DNA from: an uncultured Armatimonadota bacterium | Lineage (GTDB): Bacteria; Armatimonadota; Armatimonadia; Armatimonadales; Armatimonadaceae | Length of the DNA: 46,761 nt | Assembly: GCA_903910385.1 (NCBI GenBank) | Contig: CAIVZM010000072.1 | Span: forward strand, 1 to 46,761 | Reading direction: 5' to 3' | Part shown: piece by piece, positions 3,711 through 40,405 of the stretch | Layout of the letters: every line of letters begins with the position of its first letter | Position numbering within the stretch: the first letter of the stretch is position 1 | The notes under the pieces: model-generated | What the model was told of the DNA's origin: nothing | Seen by the model: only the letters and a program-made list of their open reading frames with translations | The model's database searches: none | Translations under genes and position numbers: made by a program

Positions 3711-3741
3711 GCGGGTAGTGGAATCAGGTTTCCACTACCGC
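3711..3741. terminator. Hairpin between convergent prfA and nuiA
   Basis: A 9-bp perfect stem (GTAGTGGAA / TTCCACTAC) with a further GC-rich extension and a 5-nt loop lies between the two converging genes. It includes the last codons and the stop of nuiA. On the minus strand it is followed by GCGCTTTTAAT, a short T run; on the plus strand there is no T tract. It is probably a weak terminator or 3'-end stabiliser serving nuiA, perhaps with Rho. Confidence 0.45.
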
Positions 3742-4197
3742 CGTCTTGATGCCAGACCATGTCCCTGAGGAGTCCCTACCCACGATATAGACGGGGATTT
3801 CCGGGTCGCCTTCGATGCGGAACGCCTCCGGATTTGTCAGATTTTCCCGAATCGCCTGAACCAGAGCGGTGAATTTCGCGCAGGTCTCTTTTTCGTCATC
3901 TCCCCACCAGTCTTTAGGCTGGGTCATCGGAGCGAAAAATTCTTCCACGGTAATCGTCTTGACCAGTGTCGGGTCTTTGGGTTGCAGGGCGTTCAGTAAG
4001 GCGTCATGAGCGCAGGAGGCGTCGCCCGTCTTTTTCCCGCTCCAGGAAAATGCTTTTATCGGTCGGTCGCTTTCGCTCATCATCAACAGACCATGCGCTA
4101 CATCATTGAGCGTATCCCGAACGGAGGCTTTTTCGGAAGTATTCTCCTTCTCCGAAGCGGATTGTTGGGCTTTCTGTATCGCACTGGCAGCATTCAT
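3724..4197 (-). CDS. nuiA: NuiA-type nuclease A inhibitor
   Basis: A 157-residue protein that aligns by eye with the Nostoc nuclease inhibitor NuiA along its last ~130 residues. Shared blocks are GLLMMSESDRP near the start, PKDWWGDDE in the middle, KFTALVQAIRENLTNPEAFR, then VYIVG and the closing GIKTAVVET. The free C-terminal Glu-Thr is notable because the terminal threonine of Nostoc NuiA reaches the catalytic metal of NucA. No signal peptide: it should stay in the cytoplasm and neutralise unexported nuclease. The first ~28 residues (Ala, Glu, Ser, Lys rich) are an added tail. ATG 4197 overlaps the nucA stop by one base (TGATG), and a GGAGG site sits six nt upstream inside the last nucA codons. 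This is clear translational coupling. The Nostoc residue roles are from memory of its structure. Confidence 0.85.
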   Translation of the reverse strand: MNAASAIQKAQQSASEKENTSEKASVRDTLNDVAHGLLMMSESDRPIKAFSWSGKKTGDASCAHDALLNALQPKDPTLVKTITVEEFFAPMTQPKDWWGDDEKETCAKFTALVQAIRENLTNPEAFRIEGDPEIPVYIVGRDSSGTWSGIKTAVVET

Positions 4198-5171
4198 CAA
4201 AAACCTCCGAAGGCGTTACTGGTTTTGCTACGCGATTTACGTGGGCGTTTGGCTTCGTGATTCTTCGCCTCCGGGTCTAGTTTCGTACGTAACGCGGCGG
4301 CGACAGGCGCGGGTAACGCCGTGAAAAATTTCAGATTCGTATCTCGCTCAATCTTCTCCGGGGTTGTCACAAATCCCTGCCAGCGTTCCTTACTGATCGT
4401 GCTGATATTGGGCATTTCCACCGCAACTACCCGTGCGGCGGCGGTGATAACACCCCCCACCGGAACAATGACGGCGATTTTCCAACCAAAATCGGGAACG
4501 GCTATTTCCGTTCGCCCAATACGCTTGAAGTTCTGGTCACGGAATCCGTGCCCGCAAATAATGTAGACATCCATACCGCTTTGCGCCTGCGAACGGCAAT
4601 ATTCTTCCAGATATTGCCAGGGTCCTGCGTTCATGCCATGCGCCTGAGGCGTGATATTGATCATCGTGAAGACGGCGTCATTATCCTCGGGGGTGGCGCT
4701 ACGATCTTTACTGGGGCAATTATGCCCCCGATCATAGCCAGAACGCGTATAATCCGCAGGCGTGACCCGTGTATACCCTGAAGGTAACTCCGGATCGGGG
4801 GAAAATTGCCCGCGAGACACATTCCCGATATCTTCTGCACGCAAGCGCCACGATACCCAGTTGGGAAAGCGGAGCGCATCATTATACGAAAGAGCAAACT
4901 GGGGGCGCACTACCAGGTACTTTGAGGAACTTGCCGGGTTACCATTGGCATTGTCGGGATTGCCCAGCTTCATTTGCTCTGGCGCAGCGCTTTCCGGCAT
5001 CGCAACGCCGGAAGGTTGACGATTTGGATTCTGGCTTGGGCCGGGAGGAGGAGGAGGCGTCGCATTGACTGTCACGGGTCCGGATATTAGGCTGCCGGGT
5101 TGTTCCGATGCATTACGACATCCAGTAAAGAGCGTAAACAAGCAACAAGCCGCCAGAGGCAAAAGCTTCAT
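4197..5171 (-). CDS. nucA: NucA-type exported DNA/RNA non-specific nuclease
   Basis: A sugar-non-specific beta-beta-alpha-metal endonuclease. The DRGH motif is at 147-150, with His150 the expected general base. NITPQ (172-176), N181 and the acidic LEEY helix (188-191) supply the metal asparagine and neighbouring residues in family order. The start at ATG 5171 gives a textbook lipoprotein signal (MKLLPLAACCLFTLFTGC, lipobox Cys18). An upstream GTG (5225) would only add 18 residues without signal character. Residues 19-82 form a Pro/Asn/Ser-rich linker, and the nuclease domain spans about 84-300, ending in a Lys/Arg-rich tail. The mature protein should be membrane-anchored outside the cytoplasm and degrade nucleic acid for nutrition, biofilm control or competition. 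Its inhibitor gene follows with a one-base overlap. Confidence 0.87.
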   Translation of the reverse strand: MKLLPLAACCLFTLFTGCRNASEQPGSLISGPVTVNATPPPPPGPSQNPNRQPSGVAMPESAAPEQMKLGNPDNANGNPASSSKYLVVRPQFALSYNDALRFPNWVSWRLRAEDIGNVSRGQFSPDPELPSGYTRVTPADYTRSGYDRGHNCPSKDRSATPEDNDAVFTMINITPQAHGMNAGPWQYLEEYCRSQAQSGMDVYIICGHGFRDQNFKRIGRTEIAVPDFGWKIAVIVPVGGVITAAARVVAVEMPNISTISKERWQGFVTTPEKIERDTNLKFFTALPAPVAAALRTKLDPEAKNHEAKRPRKSRSKTSNAFGGF

Positions 5172-16619: not shown

Positions 16620-19600
16620 ATGTCAATAGCGCCGACACCCGTCGGGGATCGACAGATGCCGGACAACCGTCCAACACGAGCGGTCGAACGCCCGTTTTAT
16701 ATTACGGGCGGCACCTTGCCGCCAGACGCATCCTCCTATGTCCCCCGCCATGCCGATCAGGATTTGTATGATGGCCTTTTGACAGGGGAATACTGCTATA
16801 TCCTGAACACACGGCAGATGGGGAAATCCTCCCTGATGGTCCGCACCGCGCAACGATTGCGGGATGCAGGTTGCATCGTCGCCGTGCTGGATCTGACCGC
16901 TATCGGGCAAAATCTGACCGTCGAGCAGTGGTATGACGGTCTTCTTGTCTCGCTTGCCGAACAATCCGGAATGGAAGATGAACTGGAGGACTTCTGGGAG
17001 GACAATCCACAACTTGGTCCGATGCAACGCTTTCTGTCCGCGATTCGCCAGGTGCTCCTGCCCAGACTCAACGGGCGAAATCTGATCATTTTCGTCGATG
17101 AGATCGATGCAGTCCGTTCCCTGCCCTTCTCCGTCAACGAGTTTTTTGGAGGAATCCGGGAGTGCTATAATCGCCGTGCTCAGGATCCCACATTTGAACA
17201 CTTGACTTTCTGCCTGCTCGGAGTCGCTACCCCTGCCGATCTGATCGACGACACCCGAATTTCGCCATTCAATGTCGGGCGTCGAATTATGCTACTGGAT
17301 TTCACGCCATCCGAAGCCGCCCCTCTGAGTCAGGGAATGAGACCTCAGGGCAATGCCCTGATCTCTCGTGTCCTGTACTGGACGAACGGGCATCCGTACA
17401 TGACCCAACGCCTGTGCCGATCCGTGGCGGAAGCGGGTCTCGCCGGTAACGTTTCTGAGACAGATGTCGATCATCTTTGCAACAATCTCTTCCTTTCCAA
17501 AGCGGCTCGCGATGGTGATGACAACCTGGCTTTTGTTCGCACGCGCCTGCTCCGAAGTGACGCCGACCTCGCCAGCCTTTTAGACCTTTATCAAAAGGTG
17601 CAGACAGGGAAGCGAGTTCCCGATGACGAAACCAACCCCCTCTGCTCAGTCTTACGTCTTTCCGGCGTCGTCCGTGTCGATAAAAACGGGCTTTTTCAGG
17701 TTCGGAATCGCATTTATGACCGCGTCTTTGATAAAGAGTGGGTAGTCGCTCATATGCCGGACGCGGAATTGCGACGGCAGAAAGCGGCTTACCGACGCGG
17801 TCTTTTCCGGGCGGCGGCTATCGGCGGCGGGTTCGCCGGCGCAATGGGAGCGCTGGCGATTTACGCATTTGTGCAACAGTCACAGGCGAAAACGGAGTGG
17901 CAACGGGCGGAAAGCAACTTCAAAATCGCCACGCAGGAGAAAAAGCGAGCGCAGAGCGAGCAACAGAAAGCCGAAGAGCAAAAAAGGGTTGCGGAAGAGC
18001 AGAAGACCCTCGCAGAAACTCGAAAGGGAATTGCGGACAAGGCTCGCGAAGAAGCTGAGCGCCAGAAAACGGCAGCGCAACAGGCTAACCAGAAGTTGGT
18101 AGTATCTCTGGATGAAGTCAAAAAACAACAACAAAGAGCCGACGATGAAGCGAAAAAGGCGCGGTTAGCCCAGAGCATCGCGGAAGAGGCGAAAAACGAA
18201 GCGTTTAAGCAAAGAAACATAGCCGTAAACCAGAGGCGTGAGGCAATTCGGCGGCGCGAAGAAGCGCGGCGCAGTCTGGCGCGTCTGGCGGAAGACAAGG
18301 GGCGGCGGTTGGCGCAAGACGGCGATTACTATGGATCGTCGCTTTATCTATCGGAAGCGTTGCGTCTGGGAACCAGTGATCCTCAGCAGAATCAGGCAGC
18401 CAAAGTTCGCTTTTCGGAGGTTGTTTCGCGGTTACCGCGCCTTGTTAACCAGTGGTCAATCCTGGGTACATCGATGCGCTCCTGCTACCCGGTAGGCTTC
18501 ACTGCCAGCGGCGCTACCGTATTTGAGGTAGGAGGTCTTTTCAACACCGTCCAGCGACAGTCAGAACCGATCAGCCAGAGCGCAAGACGCGAAGGGGCGA
18601 CGGTTGCTTTCTGGAAGCCGGATGTCGGGCGGATGAATCAGGATATCGTCCCACTACCGTTCGCAGAATCGACGCCGAACCATCTGATATGGCTGTCAGA
18701 GGATGGTCGAATGGCGCTCTCACAGATGCCCGCTTCCCGGCAGGGTTATGTCCGGTTGCAACTATGGTCTATTGCCGAAGCGGGAAAACGCCCAGCGACG
18801 CCGCTGTATCGAGCGTGTGAGACGACAACGCTAAAGAGTTCTTCCTCTGTTGATGTCTCTCAAAATGGTTCCCGGATCGCAATGATAGATTATCGCGGAA
18901 TCATTTCCGTCTGCGATTTGCCGTCCGGGAAAGTAATTCTGGAGCGTGCCAGCTTGCTATCTGCGCCGCGGCCGGCGATCAGTCCCGATGGCAGTATCGT
19001 CGTGTATCAGGAACAACGTACCGATTCGTCCCCAAATAATGTCTATATGGTGAGTTTGAGTGACGGAGCCACACTGCAAAAAGTGAATCCCACCAATAAA
19101 ACCATCAAAGATCTGCAAATCAGTCCGGATGGACGTCGGCTTCTGATAGTGGCTCCCTATTTCACCACCCTCTATAAAATTGTACGCGAGGGTGATGAAC
19201 GATCACTCAAGATAGCGTCACCGACAGAAATCGGCGTCCAGTATGCGATAAAAGGTAAATTTTCGTCCGATAGTAAACTCCTTGCGCTGGGAAGTGGTAG
19301 CGAGGTCATCGTCTGCAACGCGGAAAATGGTCAACGTATCGCCGTTTTGCATCCTAATATAGGGGGAATCAGTCTGCTTTGTTTCAGCCCGAACGGTCGT
19401 ATTCTGGCGGTTGGCGGACAGAATCAAACGCTTACCCTCTGGAATACGGACGATTTTAGCGCTCCCCCTACAAAGATACGCCATACATCGCCGATCTGGC
19501 GTTGTAATTTCAGTCCGGACAGCAGGCTTCTTCTTACAATGGATGCAGGTTCGTCCGCGCGTCTCTGGGATTTGCAACAGAGTATTCCTGAAGGACGAAC

Positions 19601-21626
19601 CCTTTTACGCGTCCACGGTATAGAAAATATCAATGAACTGGAAGCCAGCCCGGATGGTCGATGGTGCGCAGCGCTTCGGGTTAACGGCACAATTACTGTT
19701 GTTAACGCCCGAACAGGGATTCCTCCATTCGCTCCCTTCCCCGTACAACCGACCTATTTTATAGGACGCTCACATCGTCGCATGCAGTTCAGTAGCGATG
19801 GAAATTACCTCGTATTTCAGGGCGATGATACGGTAAGCGTTTTTGATATGCGCTCCGGCAAACTCCTGTGGAAAATGAGTGCAAACGCCGGTAAGAACGC
19901 CAATACCCGCCTGGTTCGCGCCATATTTCTTCCGGGTTCCTCACACCTTGTTACGGCGGATGCCAGTGGAACCGTCAAATTCTGGGAGCAGGCTACCGGG
20001 AAGCCAATCGGGAAACCATTCCGCCGAAGCGCATCCGCCGACGCCGGATTATCCGATATCGCCATACATCCGGACGGCGACCGTATCGCCCTCCTCTTTC
20101 AACGCGAAACGATCTCCTGGAATTGGAAGACAGGTCGAATCGTACCGATGGAAGGAACCACAGACTGGCGTCCCGGCGACAAGCTAGACTTTAGCCCAGA
20201 TGGCAAGACACTGATCTGCTACGGGTCTTCCAATGCGATTCCACGAACGAGTGCGCAACCGGGAGCGAAACGCCCTGAACCGCATCAGGTAAACCTCTGG
20301 AACGCGGATACCGGAAAAATCCAGACTCGCCTGCTACATACCGAGGATGCACATGCGGTAGCATTTTCGCCGGATAGTAAAAGAGTGATGACAGCCGCCG
20401 GTACGAACGCTTATCTGTGGAACGCTACGACCGGCCAGACGCTCTCTTCACCTTTACCGCATCCCGATTCCGTGACCAATGTGGCGTTCACCCGCGATGG
20501 AGTCATGGGAATTACTGGATGCATGGACTCGACACTCCGTATCTGGGATGGTTCCGGAGAGATGATTTTTCAGCGCACGGGGAAAAATCGAAACGCCGGG
20601 GCGGTAGTTGGACTTACCCTGTCGCCCGATGGGCATGAAATATGGGGCGGCGGTTGGATAGGAGCCGCAGCATGGGAAATTCCGCGTCCCTACGGTATCC
20701 CTGACGAACTGGTCAGGACTGCCAATTTGCTGGCTTGCGAAGAAGTCACTTCTGAAGGCGGTTCCGCCCTGAGTCAGGCTCGTCTGGATGTCACCTGGAA
20801 ACAGATGTCTCAGAATCCGCTGATTGGCGGCTTGAACGAAACCAGCCCTCAAATCCTACGCCGTCAGGCAATCACTTATCTTGATTCCCAGCAGTGGAAA
20901 GAGGCGGAGCGTCTGGCGACAGCGACGCTCGATCACTGGCCCGCCGATGCCGAAGCGTTGACCGCTCGTATGGTCGCTCGTACCTTTCAGGGACACTTTA
21001 AGGAAGCGCTGGAAGACTCGAAGCGTCTTCAGGTTCAGGGCGACCCGAGTTGGTTGCCGGTGGATGTCGGAATATTGCTCTGCAATACGAATGACATGGA
21101 ACAATATCGCCAACTTTGCCGCAATCGGCTGGAAATTATGCCTCCTGTAGAGTCCCTGTCTCCGGATGATTTTAGTCCCTTACGCGTATTGACGCTCGCG
21201 CCTGGCGGGCTGGATAATTACGACTCCACCATACAGATTGCGGAACGGGGCATCGCGCGTTACCCTACCGCACAGGCGCCGCAATATTTGCTCATCGGTT
21301 TGCTTTACCGGGCAGGACGTTATGAGGAAGCGTTGAATCGATACGAAAATTTTCCGACCAATCGTGGCTCGGAATGGCCTTTGCTGGAGTGCGGAGCCAG
21401 ATACTATGCCGCATTCGCTAACGCCCGTCTTAATAGTATGGATAGAGCCAGAGAATTATTCACTCAGGCGCGACAGTTACGTTCCAAATTGATGAATGTG
21501 TGGCGTTACCGGTTGGAGACCAATGTCATCGACCGTGAGGGGGAACAGATTCTGGGGAAAACATCGGTGGCGCGGCAGGGAAGTTTCACTGCGCCACCAT
21601 TACCCAAACGGCTCAGGAGTCTGTGA
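16620..21626 (+). CDS. Giant AAA_35-type ATPase with TM, coiled coil, WD40-like propeller and TPR tail
   Basis: 1668 residues. The N-terminal ATPase (about 20-380) is of the AAA-like type common in cyanobacteria. FYITGGTLPPDASSYVPR opens it, Walker A is RQMGKSS (65-71) and Walker B is LIIFVDE (155-161). A single TM helix lies near 395-415. A Lys/Glu/Gln-rich coiled coil with EEQKRVAEEQK-type repeats spans about 420-570. WD40/TolB-like blades (FSPDSRLL, SPDGRRLL, LWNTDD, LWNATTG) fill about 610-1360. TPR-like helices (about 1400-1640) end the protein. No signal peptide; the ATPase is probably cytoplasmic and the propeller across the membrane or on the inner face, depending on topology. The architecture is that of STAND-like signal hubs; ligand and output are unknown. 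ATG 16620 has AGGA 11 nt upstream. It is monocistronic, behind a CRP-like site and doubled -10. Confidence 0.85.
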   Translation: MSIAPTPVGDRQMPDNRPTRAVERPFYITGGTLPPDASSYVPRHADQDLYDGLLTGEYCYILNTRQMGKSSLMVRTAQRLRDAGCIVAVLDLTAIGQNLTVEQWYDGLLVSLAEQSGMEDELEDFWEDNPQLGPMQRFLSAIRQVLLPRLNGRNLIIFVDEIDAVRSLPFSVNEFFGGIRECYNRRAQDPTFEHLTFCLLGVATPADLIDDTRISPFNVGRRIMLLDFTPSEAAPLSQGMRPQGNALISRVLYWTNGHPYMTQRLCRSVAEAGLAGNVSETDVDHLCNNLFLSKAARDGDDNLAFVRTRLLRSDADLASLLDLYQKVQTGKRVPDDETNPLCSVLRLSGVVRVDKNGLFQVRNRIYDRVFDKEWVVAHMPDAELRRQKAAYRRGLFRAAAIGGGFAGAMGALAIYAFVQQSQAKTEWQRAESNFKIATQEKKRAQSEQQKAEEQKRVAEEQKTLAETRKGIADKAREEAERQKTAAQQANQKLVVSLDEVKKQQQRADDEAKKARLAQSIAEEAKNEAFKQRNIAVNQRREAIRRREEARRSLARLAEDKGRRLAQDGDYYGSSLYLSEALRLGTSDPQQNQAAKVRFSEVVSRLPRLVNQWSILGTSMRSCYPVGFTASGATVFEVGGLFNTVQRQSEPISQSARREGATVAFWKPDVGRMNQDIVPLPFAESTPNHLIWLSEDGRMALSQMPASRQGYVRLQLWSIAEAGKRPATPLYRACETTTLKSSSSVDVSQNGSRIAMIDYRGIISVCDLPSGKVILERASLLSAPRPAISPDGSIVVYQEQRTDSSPNNVYMVSLSDGATLQKVNPTNKTIKDLQISPDGRRLLIVAPYFTTLYKIVREGDERSLKIASPTEIGVQYAIKGKFSSDSKLLALGSGSEVIVCNAENGQRIAVLHPNIGGISLLCFSPNGRILAVGGQNQTLTLWNTDDFSAPPTKIRHTSPIWRCNFSPDSRLLLTMDAGSSARLWDLQQSIPEGRTLLRVHGIENINELEASPDGRWCAALRVNGTITVVNARTGIPPFAPFPVQPTYFIGRSHRRMQFSSDGNYLVFQGDDTVSVFDMRSGKLLWKMSANAGKNANTRLVRAIFLPGSSHLVTADASGTVKFWEQATGKPIGKPFRRSASADAGLSDIAIHPDGDRIALLFQRETISWNWKTGRIVPMEGTTDWRPGDKLDFSPDGKTLICYGSSNAIPRTSAQPGAKRPEPHQVNLWNADTGKIQTRLLHTEDAHAVAFSPDSKRVMTAAGTNAYLWNATTGQTLSSPLPHPDSVTNVAFTRDGVMGITGCMDSTLRIWDGSGEMIFQRTGKNRNAGAVVGLTLSPDGHEIWGGGWIGAAAWEIPRPYGIPDELVRTANLLACEEVTSEGGSALSQARLDVTWKQMSQNPLIGGLNETSPQILRRQAITYLDSQQWKEAERLATATLDHWPADAEALTARMVARTFQGHFKEALEDSKRLQVQGDPSWLPVDVGILLCNTNDMEQYRQLCRNRLEIMPPVESLSPDDFSPLRVLTLAPGGLDNYDSTIQIAERGIARYPTAQAPQYLLIGLLYRAGRYEEALNRYENFPTNRGSEWPLLECGARYYAAFANARLNSMDRARELFTQARQLRSKLMNVWRYRLETNVIDREGEQILGKTSVARQGSFTAPPLPKRLRSL

Positions 21627-25535: not shown

Positions 25536-26679
25536 GTGTTGAACGAAATCTCTAAAGAGATAGAACGGCTTCGCGAACGTCTGCTCGAATTGAGGGGTCA
25601 TCTTTGACCTCACCAGACGTGAGAAAGAATTAGCGGAATTAGAAGCGGCGGGAGCCAACCCTGATTTATGGAACGACGCCGCAAAAGCCCAGCAGGTAAT
25701 GCGGGACACGGCAGCGGTACGCGATTTTGTCGCGCCTTACCACGAAATGTCGCGGAAGGTATCGGACGCGCAAACGCTTCTGGAAATGGCAGACGCTGAA
25801 GGCGAAGTCGAAGCATACGCAGGGGAAATTCATAGCGAACTGTCCGGCATCGAAGAGAAGGTGGCGGCGCTGGAAATCAAGGCGTTGCTTTCCGGCCCAC
25901 ATGATCGTGCGTCCGCCATTATCGAACTAAAGCCAGGCGCAGGCGGTACAGATGCCTGTGACTGGGCGCAGATGCTGGAGCGCATGTATTTACGCTGGGC
26001 GGACGAACAGGGCTACAAGGCGGAAATCGCCTCCGAACAACCGGGAGATGTGGCGGGAATCTCCTCCGCAACTATTTTTGTTGAAGGAGTGAACGCCTAC
26101 GGAATGTTACGCTCCGAACATGGCGTACACAGGTTGGTGCGTATCTCGCCGTTCAATGCGAACGGGAAGCGGCAAACATCCTTTGCAGCAGTCGAAATTA
26201 TGCCGCAACTGGAAGGGCCGGGCGAGATTCAAATCGACCCGAAGGATATTGAGATCGATACGTTCCGGGCGTCCGGCGCGGGTGGGCAACACGTCAACAA
26301 GACAAGTTCCGCCGTCCGTGTACGACATCTACCATCGGGTATTGTCGTGGAATGTCAGAACGAACGGTCACAGTTCCAGAATAAGGAAGTCGCGCTCAAA
26401 GTGCTTGCCGGACGCCTTGCCGAACGGAAAGCGCGAGAGGAAGAAGCGAAGTTGTCCGCGATACGCGGCGACCAACGCGCTATCGAATGGGGTAGTCAAA
26501 TTCGCTCATACGTGTTTCAGCCGTACACGCTGGTCAAAGACCATCGAACAAAAGCGGAGGCGAGCGATATCAATAAAGTGATGGACGGTCATATCGAACC
26601 ATTTATCACCGGTTACCTGCGCTGGCGCGCCGGCGACGGAGAAACAGGAGCGGAGCATGGAAACGACGATTTGGAATAA
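25536..26679 (+). CDS. prfB: Peptide chain release factor 2, expressed by programmed +1 frameshift
   Basis: RF2 reads UGA and UAA. The gene is in two frames. Codons from GTG 25536 give 23 residues ending ...RGHL at CTT (25602-25604), followed by an in-frame TGA (25605-25607). Shifting +1 past the first T resumes at GAC 25606 (DLTRREKELAELEAAG...). The slippery CTTTGAC and the upstream AGGGG (25593-25597) match the classic E. coli site. Low RF2 stalls at its own UGA and favours the shift, so the gene is autoregulated. The product has about 380 residues. SPF (in ISPFNANGKRQTS) is the UGA/UAA recognition motif and AGGQHVNKTSSAVR holds catalytic GGQ. A caller without frameshift handling would begin it wrongly at 25699. 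The next gene starts within its 3' end. Confidence 0.95.
25593..25608 (+). promoter_or_regulatory. prfB programmed frameshift site
   Basis: An internal Shine-Dalgarno-like AGGGG, a 4-nt spacer, then CTT TGA C. The in-frame UGA followed by C is the poorest termination context. The arrangement is the conserved recoding signal of bacterial prfB. Confidence 0.95.
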
Positions 26680-38844: not shown

Positions 38845-39603
38845 ATGATAATCGAAGCAATCTATAAGATTCTATCGGAGACGAACGCCGAATATACTCC
38901 CGAAGAAATTCGGAAAGCGCTGGAATTATCCCCGGCGGAAATGGACGAGGCTCTGACCCGCCTTGTTAAAGATCAACGCGCTTTCGTTCTCGCAAACGGC
39001 GCATATATTTCCGACAGAACAGCCACCCGTCTCATAGATACGGCGCGGCGCGTTTTGACAGCCTACCATCGCAAGAACCCCTACAAAAACACGATGCCGA
39101 TAGTGGATTTGAACGCCTCCCTCACACGCGCGGCGACAATGAAAGATTTCACTTTCATCGCCGATTTTCTGCAAGTGCAAGGCATCGCCGTTCGTGCGGA
39201 GGACGGCATTCGTCTGCCCGAACATCAGGTGACGCTCCCGGAACCCTGGCTCCAACCGGCGGAGGAAATCCTGGCGGTCTATCAGGCGGCGCGATTCGAT
39301 CCGCCGATGCCGGGCAACTTTCAGGCGAATTATCCGCGCGATATCAACGTCATGGCAATCCTCAAAATTCTTTCAGAAATAAAGAAACTGGTAGAGTTGA
39401 CGGATCAGGTTTATATCAGCTATGAGGCGTTCGAGGAAGCGTTCGCCTGCGTCAAGCAGTTAGCGGGAACGCCGGAAGGCGTTACAATAGCCACTCTTCG
39501 GGACGCTACACAATCCACGCGCAAGATTTCGACTCCCCTACTGGAGTATATGGATGCAAAAGGCTTGACGCGCCGGATCGGCGACAAAAGACTACCTGTG
39601 TAA
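38845..39603 (+). CDS. Orphan SelB C-terminal winged-helix protein
   Basis: 252 residues of tandem winged helices. From about residue 70 it resembles the C-terminal region of the selenocysteine elongation factor SelB. YHRKNPYKNTMPIVDL corresponds to the conserved FHxxxPxxxGMP segment, and ADFLQVQGIAVRAEDGIRLPEHQVTL follows. The end, TIATLRDATQSTRKISTPLLEYMDAKGLTRRIGDKRLPV, is nearly the SelB terminal domain (RDxxxTSRKxxLPLLExxDxxGxTRRxGDxRxL). The first 65 residues are another winged helix (YTPEEIRKALELSPAEMDEALTRL). The GTPase and EF-Tu-like domains are wholly absent and no selA, selD or selC gene is nearby. It may bind RNA or DNA as a regulator, or be a separately encoded SelB half. No ribosome site is apparent. 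Confidence 0.7.
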   Translation: MIIEAIYKILSETNAEYTPEEIRKALELSPAEMDEALTRLVKDQRAFVLANGAYISDRTATRLIDTARRVLTAYHRKNPYKNTMPIVDLNASLTRAATMKDFTFIADFLQVQGIAVRAEDGIRLPEHQVTLPEPWLQPAEEILAVYQAARFDPPMPGNFQANYPRDINVMAILKILSEIKKLVELTDQVYISYEAFEEAFACVKQLAGTPEGVTIATLRDATQSTRKISTPLLEYMDAKGLTRRIGDKRLPV

Positions 39604-39781: not shown

Positions 39782-40405
39782 ATGAATCGTATGATCCGTT
39801 GTATATCGTTGCTGTCCCTGACCATCGCTCTTGCCTTACCGGGTCTCGCCCAGGTTCCGACACCACCGGTGGCGCCTCCTGCTAACGCTCCAGGCGTTCC
39901 CGCCCCTCCCGTTGCCCCGCCGACTCCCAAAGCCAAAAAAGCGAAGGCTAAAAAAGAAAAGAAAAGCAAAAAGCAGGAAGGAACGACAAAGTCAGCTACC
40001 GACAAGGAAAAGCCGACTGACGCCGCAAATGCTACGCCAGGCGCTACAGTAACGCCGACTACGACAACGCCTGCTGTTGCGCCATCTGCTGCGCCATCTG
40101 CCGCGACGACCGTCGCCACTCCATCCCGGGTCGCTCAGCCAGCAGCGGCAGGGACGACGGCGACCGCCGTCAAAACGCCGAAAACGCGAGAAGCTAAATC
40201 CGGCAAAGGTCGGACGAAGTCCGACAAGCCTGCCGTGATTGTCCGTTCGACGCCGTTACCGGGCGATGTCTGGGTAAACACAGATACCGGAATCTACCAC
40301 GGTGCAAAGTCGAAATGGTATGGCAAAACCAAAGAAGGAACCTACATGAGCGAGTCCGAGGCGAAATCCCGAGGCTACCGCGTGTCCAAATCCAAAACCG
40401 AATAA
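39782..40405 (+). CDS. Exported low-complexity protein with C-terminal conserved motif
   Basis: 207 residues, ATG 39782 behind GGAGGA at 8 nt. A signal peptide ([16 protein letters not shown]) is followed by Pro/Ala/Val repeats, a Lys-rich stretch ([15 protein letters not shown], about 50-64) and Thr/Ala/Pro linker. The last ~45 residues form a short conserved domain: [40 protein letters not shown]. That C-terminal pattern (VWVNTxSGxYH...YGxTKxGxYMxExxAxxxGYR) recurs at the ends of many small exported proteins; its function is unknown to me. The basic segment could bind DNA or acidic polymers at the surface. Confidence 0.7.

What the first reader, a model, noticed from the sequence alone, without database searches (positions are those of the whole stretch)
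3724..5171. NucA-NuiA nuclease/inhibitor pair encoded as one coupled unit
A lipoprotein DRGH nuclease and a NuiA-like inhibitor overlap by one base (TGATG), with the inhibitor's GGAGG site inside the nuclease's last codons. The inhibitor keeps the C-terminal Glu-Thr used by Nostoc NuiA to reach the metal. The order (effector then immunity), with the effector exported and the inhibitor kept inside, resembles an effector-immunity module or a safeguard against premature folding. I do not recall this coupled arrangement being described outside cyanobacteria.
Basis: partly seen in the sequence, partly recalled or inferred. Interest (0 to 1): 0.75.

Follow-up and report, generated by a model that had tools for sequence, protein, structure and literature searches.

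The report
Exported nuclease with translationally coupled inhibitor
This bacterium makes an exported DNA/RNA-cutting enzyme and, from the very next overlapping gene, the protein expected to block it; the pair is a known cyanobacterial type, but the joined 'cutter then blocker' gene order seems to have arisen once in this bacterial family, since neighbouring pairs elsewhere face each other tail to tail.

Summary
On the minus strand a NucA-type nuclease (PF01223, E 3e-45) with an apparent lipoprotein signal overlaps a NuiA-type inhibitor (PF07924, E 7e-36) by one base (TGATG); GGAGG lies six bases before the inhibitor ATG, inside the nuclease's last codons. Models of both match the two chains of the Anabaena NucA-NuiA complex (2O3B), and the inhibitor's Glu24 and C-terminal Thr equivalents are invariant. 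It is the genome's only such pair.

New here: neighbouring pairs elsewhere in the phylum and in cyanobacteria are convergent (7 of 7 within 1.3 kb; 17 of 17 genome loci; 19 of 19 plasmids). Only four genomes of the window's own family have nuclease then inhibitor, overlapping, each with GGAGG exactly six bases upstream; their nucleases form one clade (100/99). The coupled order thus looks like one retained rearrangement and is not the cyanobacterial arrangement.

Most likely the inhibitor, made from the same mRNA and kept inside, neutralises nuclease that folds before export. Effector-immunity is poorly supported; the closest logic is B. subtilis nucA-nin. Known kind, new gene arrangement, moderate-to-low interest. 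Binding and inhibition were not tested; no complex was modelled.

The parts
4197..5171 (-). NucA-type DNA/RNA non-specific endonuclease (DRGH, beta-beta-alpha-metal), 324 aa: lipoprotein-like N-terminus (LFTGC), disordered linker ~20-65, nuclease domain ~66-300, basic low-confidence C-terminal tail ~301-324
   Evidence: Pfam PF01223 E 3.3e-45; PDB 1ZM8/2O3B_A E 1.3e-45; model pLDDT >90 over the domain, Foldseek best hit 2O3B_A E 2.3e-27, TMt 0.91; R148, H150, N172, N181, E189 invariant in alignment A2
3724..4197 (-). NuiA-type nuclease inhibitor, 157 aa, no evident export signal, ending VVET
   Evidence: Pfam PF07924 E 6.8e-36; PDB 1J57/2O3B_B E ~2e-23; model mean pLDDT 87.8, only significant Foldseek hit 2O3B_B E 9.4e-14, TMt 0.87; E42 and E156-T157 invariant
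4195..4199 (-). TGATG stop/start overlap joining the two genes
   Evidence: sequence; ATGA or ATGATG in three relatives
4204..4208 (-). GGAGG Shine-Dalgarno-like site of the inhibitor, inside the nuclease's C-terminal Gly-Gly codons, six bases before the ATG
   Evidence: same motif and same six-base spacing in all four family pairs
3714..3739 (.). 10-bp perfect inverted repeat spanning the inhibitor's last codons and stop, between the convergent prfA and inhibitor genes; possible bidirectional terminator without a clear T-run
   Evidence: hairpin -14.7 kcal/mol for the core

Best explanation
The two genes are a NucA-NuiA nuclease/inhibitor pair organised as a two-gene operon. The nuclease is made as a lipoprotein precursor and exported unfolded; outside the cytoplasm it folds, binds a divalent metal and degrades DNA and RNA, for scavenging or for handling incoming DNA. 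Ribosomes finishing the nuclease restart at the overlapping ATG, helped by the GGAGG site in the nuclease's last codons, so the inhibitor is made from every nuclease-translating message. The inhibitor stays inside and binds any nuclease molecule that folds before export: its Glu42 and C-terminal Thr157 (equivalents of Anabaena Glu24 and Thr135) enter the active site at the metal. Shown here: families, folds, overlap, conservation of the coupling in four genomes and of the key residues. Inferred: one transcript, translational restart, cytoplasmic location, binding and inhibition. The coupled order probably arose once in this bacterial family from a tail-to-tail pair.
For: Families and folds. 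The only NuiA and the only Endonuclease_NS gene of the genome are this pair. All 13 genomes of the phylum with NuiA also have the nuclease. The two other high-scoring nucleases, in G193 and G252, read as EndoG/Serratia-like rather than NucA-like. Overlap with GGAGG at exactly six bases in four genomes including the window, although the inhibitors of G008 and G009 share only 35-39% with the window's. Glu24 equivalent invariant in all 33 inhibitors of the larger set, and ...ET at the end of all 32 complete ones. Nuclease catalytic residues invariant. Nuclease and inhibitor distances covary (r 0.85; 0.53 within the phylum), though this does not remove shared ancestry. Published: NucA kept in the cytoplasm by removing its signal peptide kills Synechocystis, and inhibitor was expressed to protect uninduced cells (PMC4890671); experimental pKd of the pair 11.49 (PMC5374557).
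Against: No RNA or protein data, and no complex was modelled. The second contact patch of NuiA (Asp75-Trp76; role from memory of the 2007 crystal paper) is kept in the window but lost in two coupled relatives (G008, G009) and in G017, so binding details must vary. Some genomes keep the two genes apart (G017, one G001 copy, G051), so coupling is not needed everywhere. NucA-like nucleases of two Bacteroidota plasmids have no annotated NuiA next to them, so an inhibitor is not universally required. No sigma-70-like promoter stands out.
Confidence: 0.75

Rival explanations
1. Effector-immunity module: the nuclease is delivered to competing cells and the inhibitor protects the producer and its kin.
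For: Order toxin then immunity, overlapping genes; NucA-type domains are known polymorphic-toxin warheads (Tox-NucA, PMC3482391).
Against: No delivery or repeat domain: signal-like N-terminus, linker, nuclease, short tail. No secretion-system gene was recognised around it by reading the ORFs. Immunity partners listed for Tox-NucA are Imm36, SUKH and NTF2; NuiA is not mentioned. The inhibitor is conserved with one invariant mechanism and there are no extra orphan copies in this genome.
Confidence: 0.08
2. DNA-uptake module like B. subtilis nucA-nin: the anchored nuclease cuts bound DNA to help uptake, and the inhibitor controls its activity.
For: Same layout as B. subtilis: membrane-anchored nuclease facing outward, inhibitor gene downstream (PMC8262900; PMC5758888). 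The genome has a ComEC-type competence protein.
Against: ComEC is widespread and matched 10 of 14 control genomes. No competence genes were recognised beside the pair. Nuclease and inhibitor belong to other families than B. subtilis NucA and Nin. Compatible with the safeguard reading; only the purpose differs.
Confidence: 0.12
3. The overlap carries no regulatory meaning: a compact operon without translational coupling.
For: Small overlaps are common in bacteria; another ORF pair in this window overlaps by 4 bases.
Against: The overlap and the exact GGAGG spacing are kept in four genomes although the proteins have diverged strongly, and an inhibitor translated in step with a lethal enzyme has an evident benefit.
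Confidence: 0.05

Closest known systems
Anabaena (Nostoc) PCC 7120 NucA-NuiA (structures 1ZM8, 1J57, 1KTU, complex 2O3B)
   Same: Both proteins by sequence and fold; catalytic residues; Glu24 and C-terminal Thr equivalents; Asp75-Trp76 pair; exported nuclease with an inhibitor lacking an export signal.
   Different: In cyanobacteria the two genes are convergent on opposite strands; here they are codirectional, overlapping and apparently translationally coupled, and the nuclease has an extra basic C-terminal tail whose codons carry the inhibitor's ribosome-binding site.
Bacillus subtilis NucA-Nin (ComI-ComJ) competence nuclease and inhibitor
   Same: Layout and logic: anchored outward-facing nuclease followed by its inhibitor gene.
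   Different: Different protein families on both sides; Nin shares no meaningful sequence and little structural similarity with NuiA (PMC5758888); a role in DNA uptake is shown there and not here.
Barnase-barstar
   Same: Secreted nuclease with a very tight cytoplasmic inhibitor that protects the producer (own knowledge).
   Different: RNase of unrelated fold; inhibitor unrelated.
Tox-NucA polymorphic toxins with Imm36/SUKH/NTF2 immunity
   Same: Nuclease superfamily and toxin-then-immunity order.
   Different: Those nucleases are domains of larger delivered proteins and use other immunity families (PMC3482391).

Membership tests
NucA-type DNA/RNA non-specific endonuclease (PF01223) | profile match over the curated cut-off across the domain | tested here: met
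   154.9 bits against cut-off 23, profile 6-221 of 223
NucA-type DNA/RNA non-specific endonuclease (PF01223) | DRGH motif and metal-binding Asn/Glu | tested here: met
   R148, H150, N181, E189 invariant in 20 aligned nucleases
NucA-type DNA/RNA non-specific endonuclease (PF01223) | fold of Anabaena NucA | tested here: met
   Foldseek best hit 2O3B_A, E 2.3e-27, TMt 0.91
NucA-type DNA/RNA non-specific endonuclease (PF01223) | metal-dependent nuclease activity | not testable with these tools
   needs purified protein
NuiA inhibitor (PF07924) | profile match over the curated cut-off | tested here: met
   123.9 bits against cut-off 22.1, profile 3-130 of 130
NuiA inhibitor (PF07924) | active-site residues Glu24 and C-terminal Thr135 | tested here: met
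   E42 and T157 align with them and are invariant
NuiA inhibitor (PF07924) | second contact patch Asp75-Trp76 | tested here: met
   DW kept in the window protein; absent in the coupled relatives G008 and G009
NuiA inhibitor (PF07924) | binding and inhibition of the partner nuclease | not testable with these tools
   no complex prediction possible with the tools given; needs an assay
Cyanobacterial nucA-nuiA locus | convergent tail-to-tail gene order | tested here: not met
   window pair is codirectional; 17 of 17 cyanobacterial genome loci with both genes close by and 19 of 19 plasmids are convergent
Polymorphic-toxin effector-immunity module | delivery or repeat domains fused to the nuclease, or a secretion locus | tested here: not met
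   only a nuclease domain plus signal-like N-terminus, linker and tail; none recognised among neighbouring ORFs
B. subtilis-type competence nuclease and Nin | homology to the B. subtilis NucA/NucB and Nin (ComJ) families | tested here: not met
   hmmscan of Pfam reports no such family for either protein at E up to 1; PF01223 and PF07924 are the matches over cut-off

The most novel reading that the evidence does not exclude
The nuclease gene's C-terminal tail is a regulatory coding element: it evolved, or was kept, to carry the inhibitor's ribosome-binding site, so that a lethal exported enzyme cannot be translated to its end without its antidote being started. A gene order that arose once, by inversion of one gene, turned two independently expressed genes into an automatically balanced enzyme-antidote message.
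Probability: 0.4. Interest if true: 0.5.

Novelty: new variant of a known kind. Interest (0 to 1): 0.36.

Why it matters
NucA-NuiA is a well-studied, very tight nuclease/inhibitor pair known from cyanobacteria. Finding it across a second phylum, with one family in which the two genes have become coupled, gives a natural comparison between separately expressed and obligately co-translated antidotes. It makes directly testable the idea that the inhibitor exists to neutralise nuclease that folds before export. It also supplies divergent pairs, including some that lack the second contact patch, for studying which contacts set the affinity.

Tried and rejected
Effector-immunity: rejected as leading reading for lack of a delivery domain and of immunity variation. 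Phage origin or carriage: no NuiA in 50,697 phage records nor in viral contigs with two queries. Recent transfer from cyanobacteria: not supported by the nuclease tree, where cyanobacteria form their own clade (100/99); the inhibitor tree is too poorly resolved to add to this. Nucleases without inhibitor in G193 and G252 looked like exceptions but read as EndoG/Serratia-like and lie near contig ends. Modelling the complex was not possible with single-chain prediction. The 2007 crystal-structure paper is not held, so the roles of Glu24, Asp75, Trp76 and Thr135 rest on memory, with positions checked by alignment to the 2O3B chain. Promoter and terminator scans gave nothing above shuffles. The phylum could not be named by the tools; Armatimonadota is a guess.

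Full report
WHAT IS THERE. On the minus strand lie two overlapping genes. The upstream gene, ATG 5171 to TGA 4197, encodes a 324-residue nuclease with an apparent lipoprotein signal (MKLLPLAACCLFTLFTGC), a Pro-rich linker, an Endonuclease_NS domain (PF01223, E 3.3e-45) and a short basic tail. The downstream gene, ATG 4197 to TGA 3724, encodes a 157-residue NuiA-family inhibitor (PF07924, E 6.8e-36). The ATG shares its A with the nuclease TGA (TGATG), and GGAGG at 4208-4204 sits six bases before it, in the codons of the nuclease's C-terminal Gly-Gly. The nuclease start is uncertain because the frame stays open to GTG 5225.

HOW SURE THE FAMILIES ARE. The closest solved proteins are the two chains of the Anabaena NucA-NuiA complex. 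AlphaFold2 models gave pLDDT above 90 over the nuclease domain and 87.8 on average for the inhibitor. Foldseek put 2O3B_A first for the nuclease (E 2.3e-27, TMt 0.91). For the inhibitor 2O3B_B was the only match at or below E 0.001 (E 9.4e-14, TMt 0.87).

MECHANISTIC RESIDUES. By the alignment, Glu24, Asp75, Trp76 and Thr135 of Anabaena NuiA correspond to Glu42, Asp96, Trp97 and Thr157 here. That these residues contact the active site and metal is from memory of the 2007 crystal-structure paper, which the library does not hold. The Glu24 equivalent is invariant in 33 inhibitors, and all 32 complete ones end in Glu-Thr. The Asp-Trp patch is kept here but replaced in G008, G009 and G017. In the nuclease Arg148, His150, Asn172, Asn181 and Glu189 are invariant.

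DISTRIBUTION. The genome has one NuiA and one Endonuclease_NS gene, this pair. In 291 genomes of the phylum, 13 have NuiA (14 genes), and all 13 also have the nuclease; 24 have some Endonuclease_NS gene. The nucleases found without NuiA are low-scoring or, in G193 and G252, EndoG/Serratia-like when read. About 106 further genomes outside the phylum, labelled 'same domain' and, in the part listed, each from a different family, had no NuiA. In 72,556 plasmids the inhibitor was found only in cyanobacteria (23 records); in phages it was not found.

GENE ORDER. Of the 14 NuiA genes in the phylum, four (window, G008, G009, G015, all of the window's family) follow the nuclease on the same strand with overlapping stop and start. 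Five are immediately convergent (G001 C12, G003, G030, G174, G208), two are convergent with about 1.2 kb, room for one gene, between (G002, G036), one is 4.7 kb away (G051) and two are on other contigs. In 386 cyanobacterial genomes, 33 have NuiA; of 30 loci read, 17 have the nuclease within 1.5 kb, all convergent. Among the 20 plasmid records listed, 19 have the nuclease close by, all convergent. Codirectional 4 of 4 against 0 of 24 gives p about 5e-5 by Fisher's test, ignoring shared ancestry. One Tolypothrix plasmid has a second nuclease about 139 bp upstream on the inhibitor's strand, without overlap.

CONSERVED COUPLING. In all four family pairs GGAGG lies exactly six bases before the inhibitor ATG (window GGAGG-TTTTTG-ATG; G008 and G009 GGAGG-GCGACG-ATG; G015 GGAGG-ACAGCA-ATG), with a 1-base or 4-base overlap; the G015 inhibitor runs off its contig. 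These nucleases carry a C-terminal extension that most convergent ones lack; exceptions are G003 and one G001 copy. The four nucleases form one clade (100/99), as do the cyanobacterial ones (100/99). The simplest history is one change from a convergent to a codirectional pair in this family. The inhibitor tree is poorly resolved and does not test this.

WHAT IT MOST LIKELY DOES. An exported nuclease is dangerous to its maker mainly while inside. Published work shows that Anabaena NucA without its signal peptide kills Synechocystis, with inhibitor expressed to protect uninduced cells (PMC4890671), and that the complex is extremely tight (pKd 11.49, PMC5374557). A cytoplasmic inhibitor translated from the same message by terminating ribosomes would cover every nuclease chain made. 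I put this at 0.75. Steps not shown: common transcript, translational restart, location, binding, inhibition. What the nuclease does outside (scavenging or DNA uptake) is open; the genome has ComEC, which is not informative because most control genomes match too.

RIVALS. Effector-immunity lacks delivery features, and NuiA is not mentioned in the polymorphic-toxin survey that lists Tox-NucA with other immunity families (PMC3482391). The same paper notes that the B. subtilis competence nuclease and its inhibitor have toxin-immunity-like order, and PMC8262900 places nin downstream of nucA, so the layout has a precedent with unrelated proteins. An overlap without meaning is unlikely given its conservation.

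LIMITS. The search of other phyla sampled few genomes each. Orientation counts include related species. The phylum is unnamed in the tools; Armatimonadota is my guess only. Two NucA-like Bacteroidota plasmid nucleases have no annotated NuiA beside them, so the inhibitor is not universal.

VERDICT. Real, and a member of the NucA-NuiA kind in a new, conserved, overlapping gene arrangement. Moderate-to-low interest, 0.36.

Noticed in passing
window 38845-39603 (+): 252-aa ORF whose only Pfam matches are SelB winged-helix domains 2 and 3 (PF09107 E 1.7e-16, PF09106 E 1.5e-4), without a SelB GTPase part in the same ORF.
   Followed up: partly
window 25590-25615 (+): prfB appears to use the usual programmed +1 frameshift (GGGGTCATCTTTGAC) upstream of the listed ORF 25699-26679.
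   Followed up: partly
window 39782-40405; L037 and L044 nucleases: A C-terminal motif of about 40 residues (VWVNTxSGxYHxPGxxWYGxTKxGxYMxEAEAxxxG) is shared by a window protein and by two NucA-type nucleases; no Pfam family matches the window protein or that part of the nucleases.
   Followed up: partly
L079, L083, L084 (cyanobacteria): Two NuiA-like stretches in tandem within one long open frame (295-678 aa), with no NucA-type nuclease detected within the 1.5 kb held on either side.
   Followed up: no
L043:6401-6940 (-), genome G002: NuiA with an N-terminal extension resembling a signal peptide (MRPFFALFGLILASLTPANA), which would put this inhibitor outside the cytoplasm if the upstream start is used.
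   Followed up: partly
L055:549-2402 (Tolypothrix sp. PCC 7910 plasmid): A second, larger nuclease lies about 139 bp upstream of NuiA on the same strand, in addition to the convergent partner.
   Followed up: no
window 3714-3739: Perfect 10-bp inverted repeat that includes the inhibitor's VVE codons, with Thr and stop codons in the loop, between convergent prfA and the inhibitor.
   Followed up: partly
window 16620-21626 (+): 1668-aa protein with an AAA-like domain (PF14516) and WD40 repeats.
   Followed up: no
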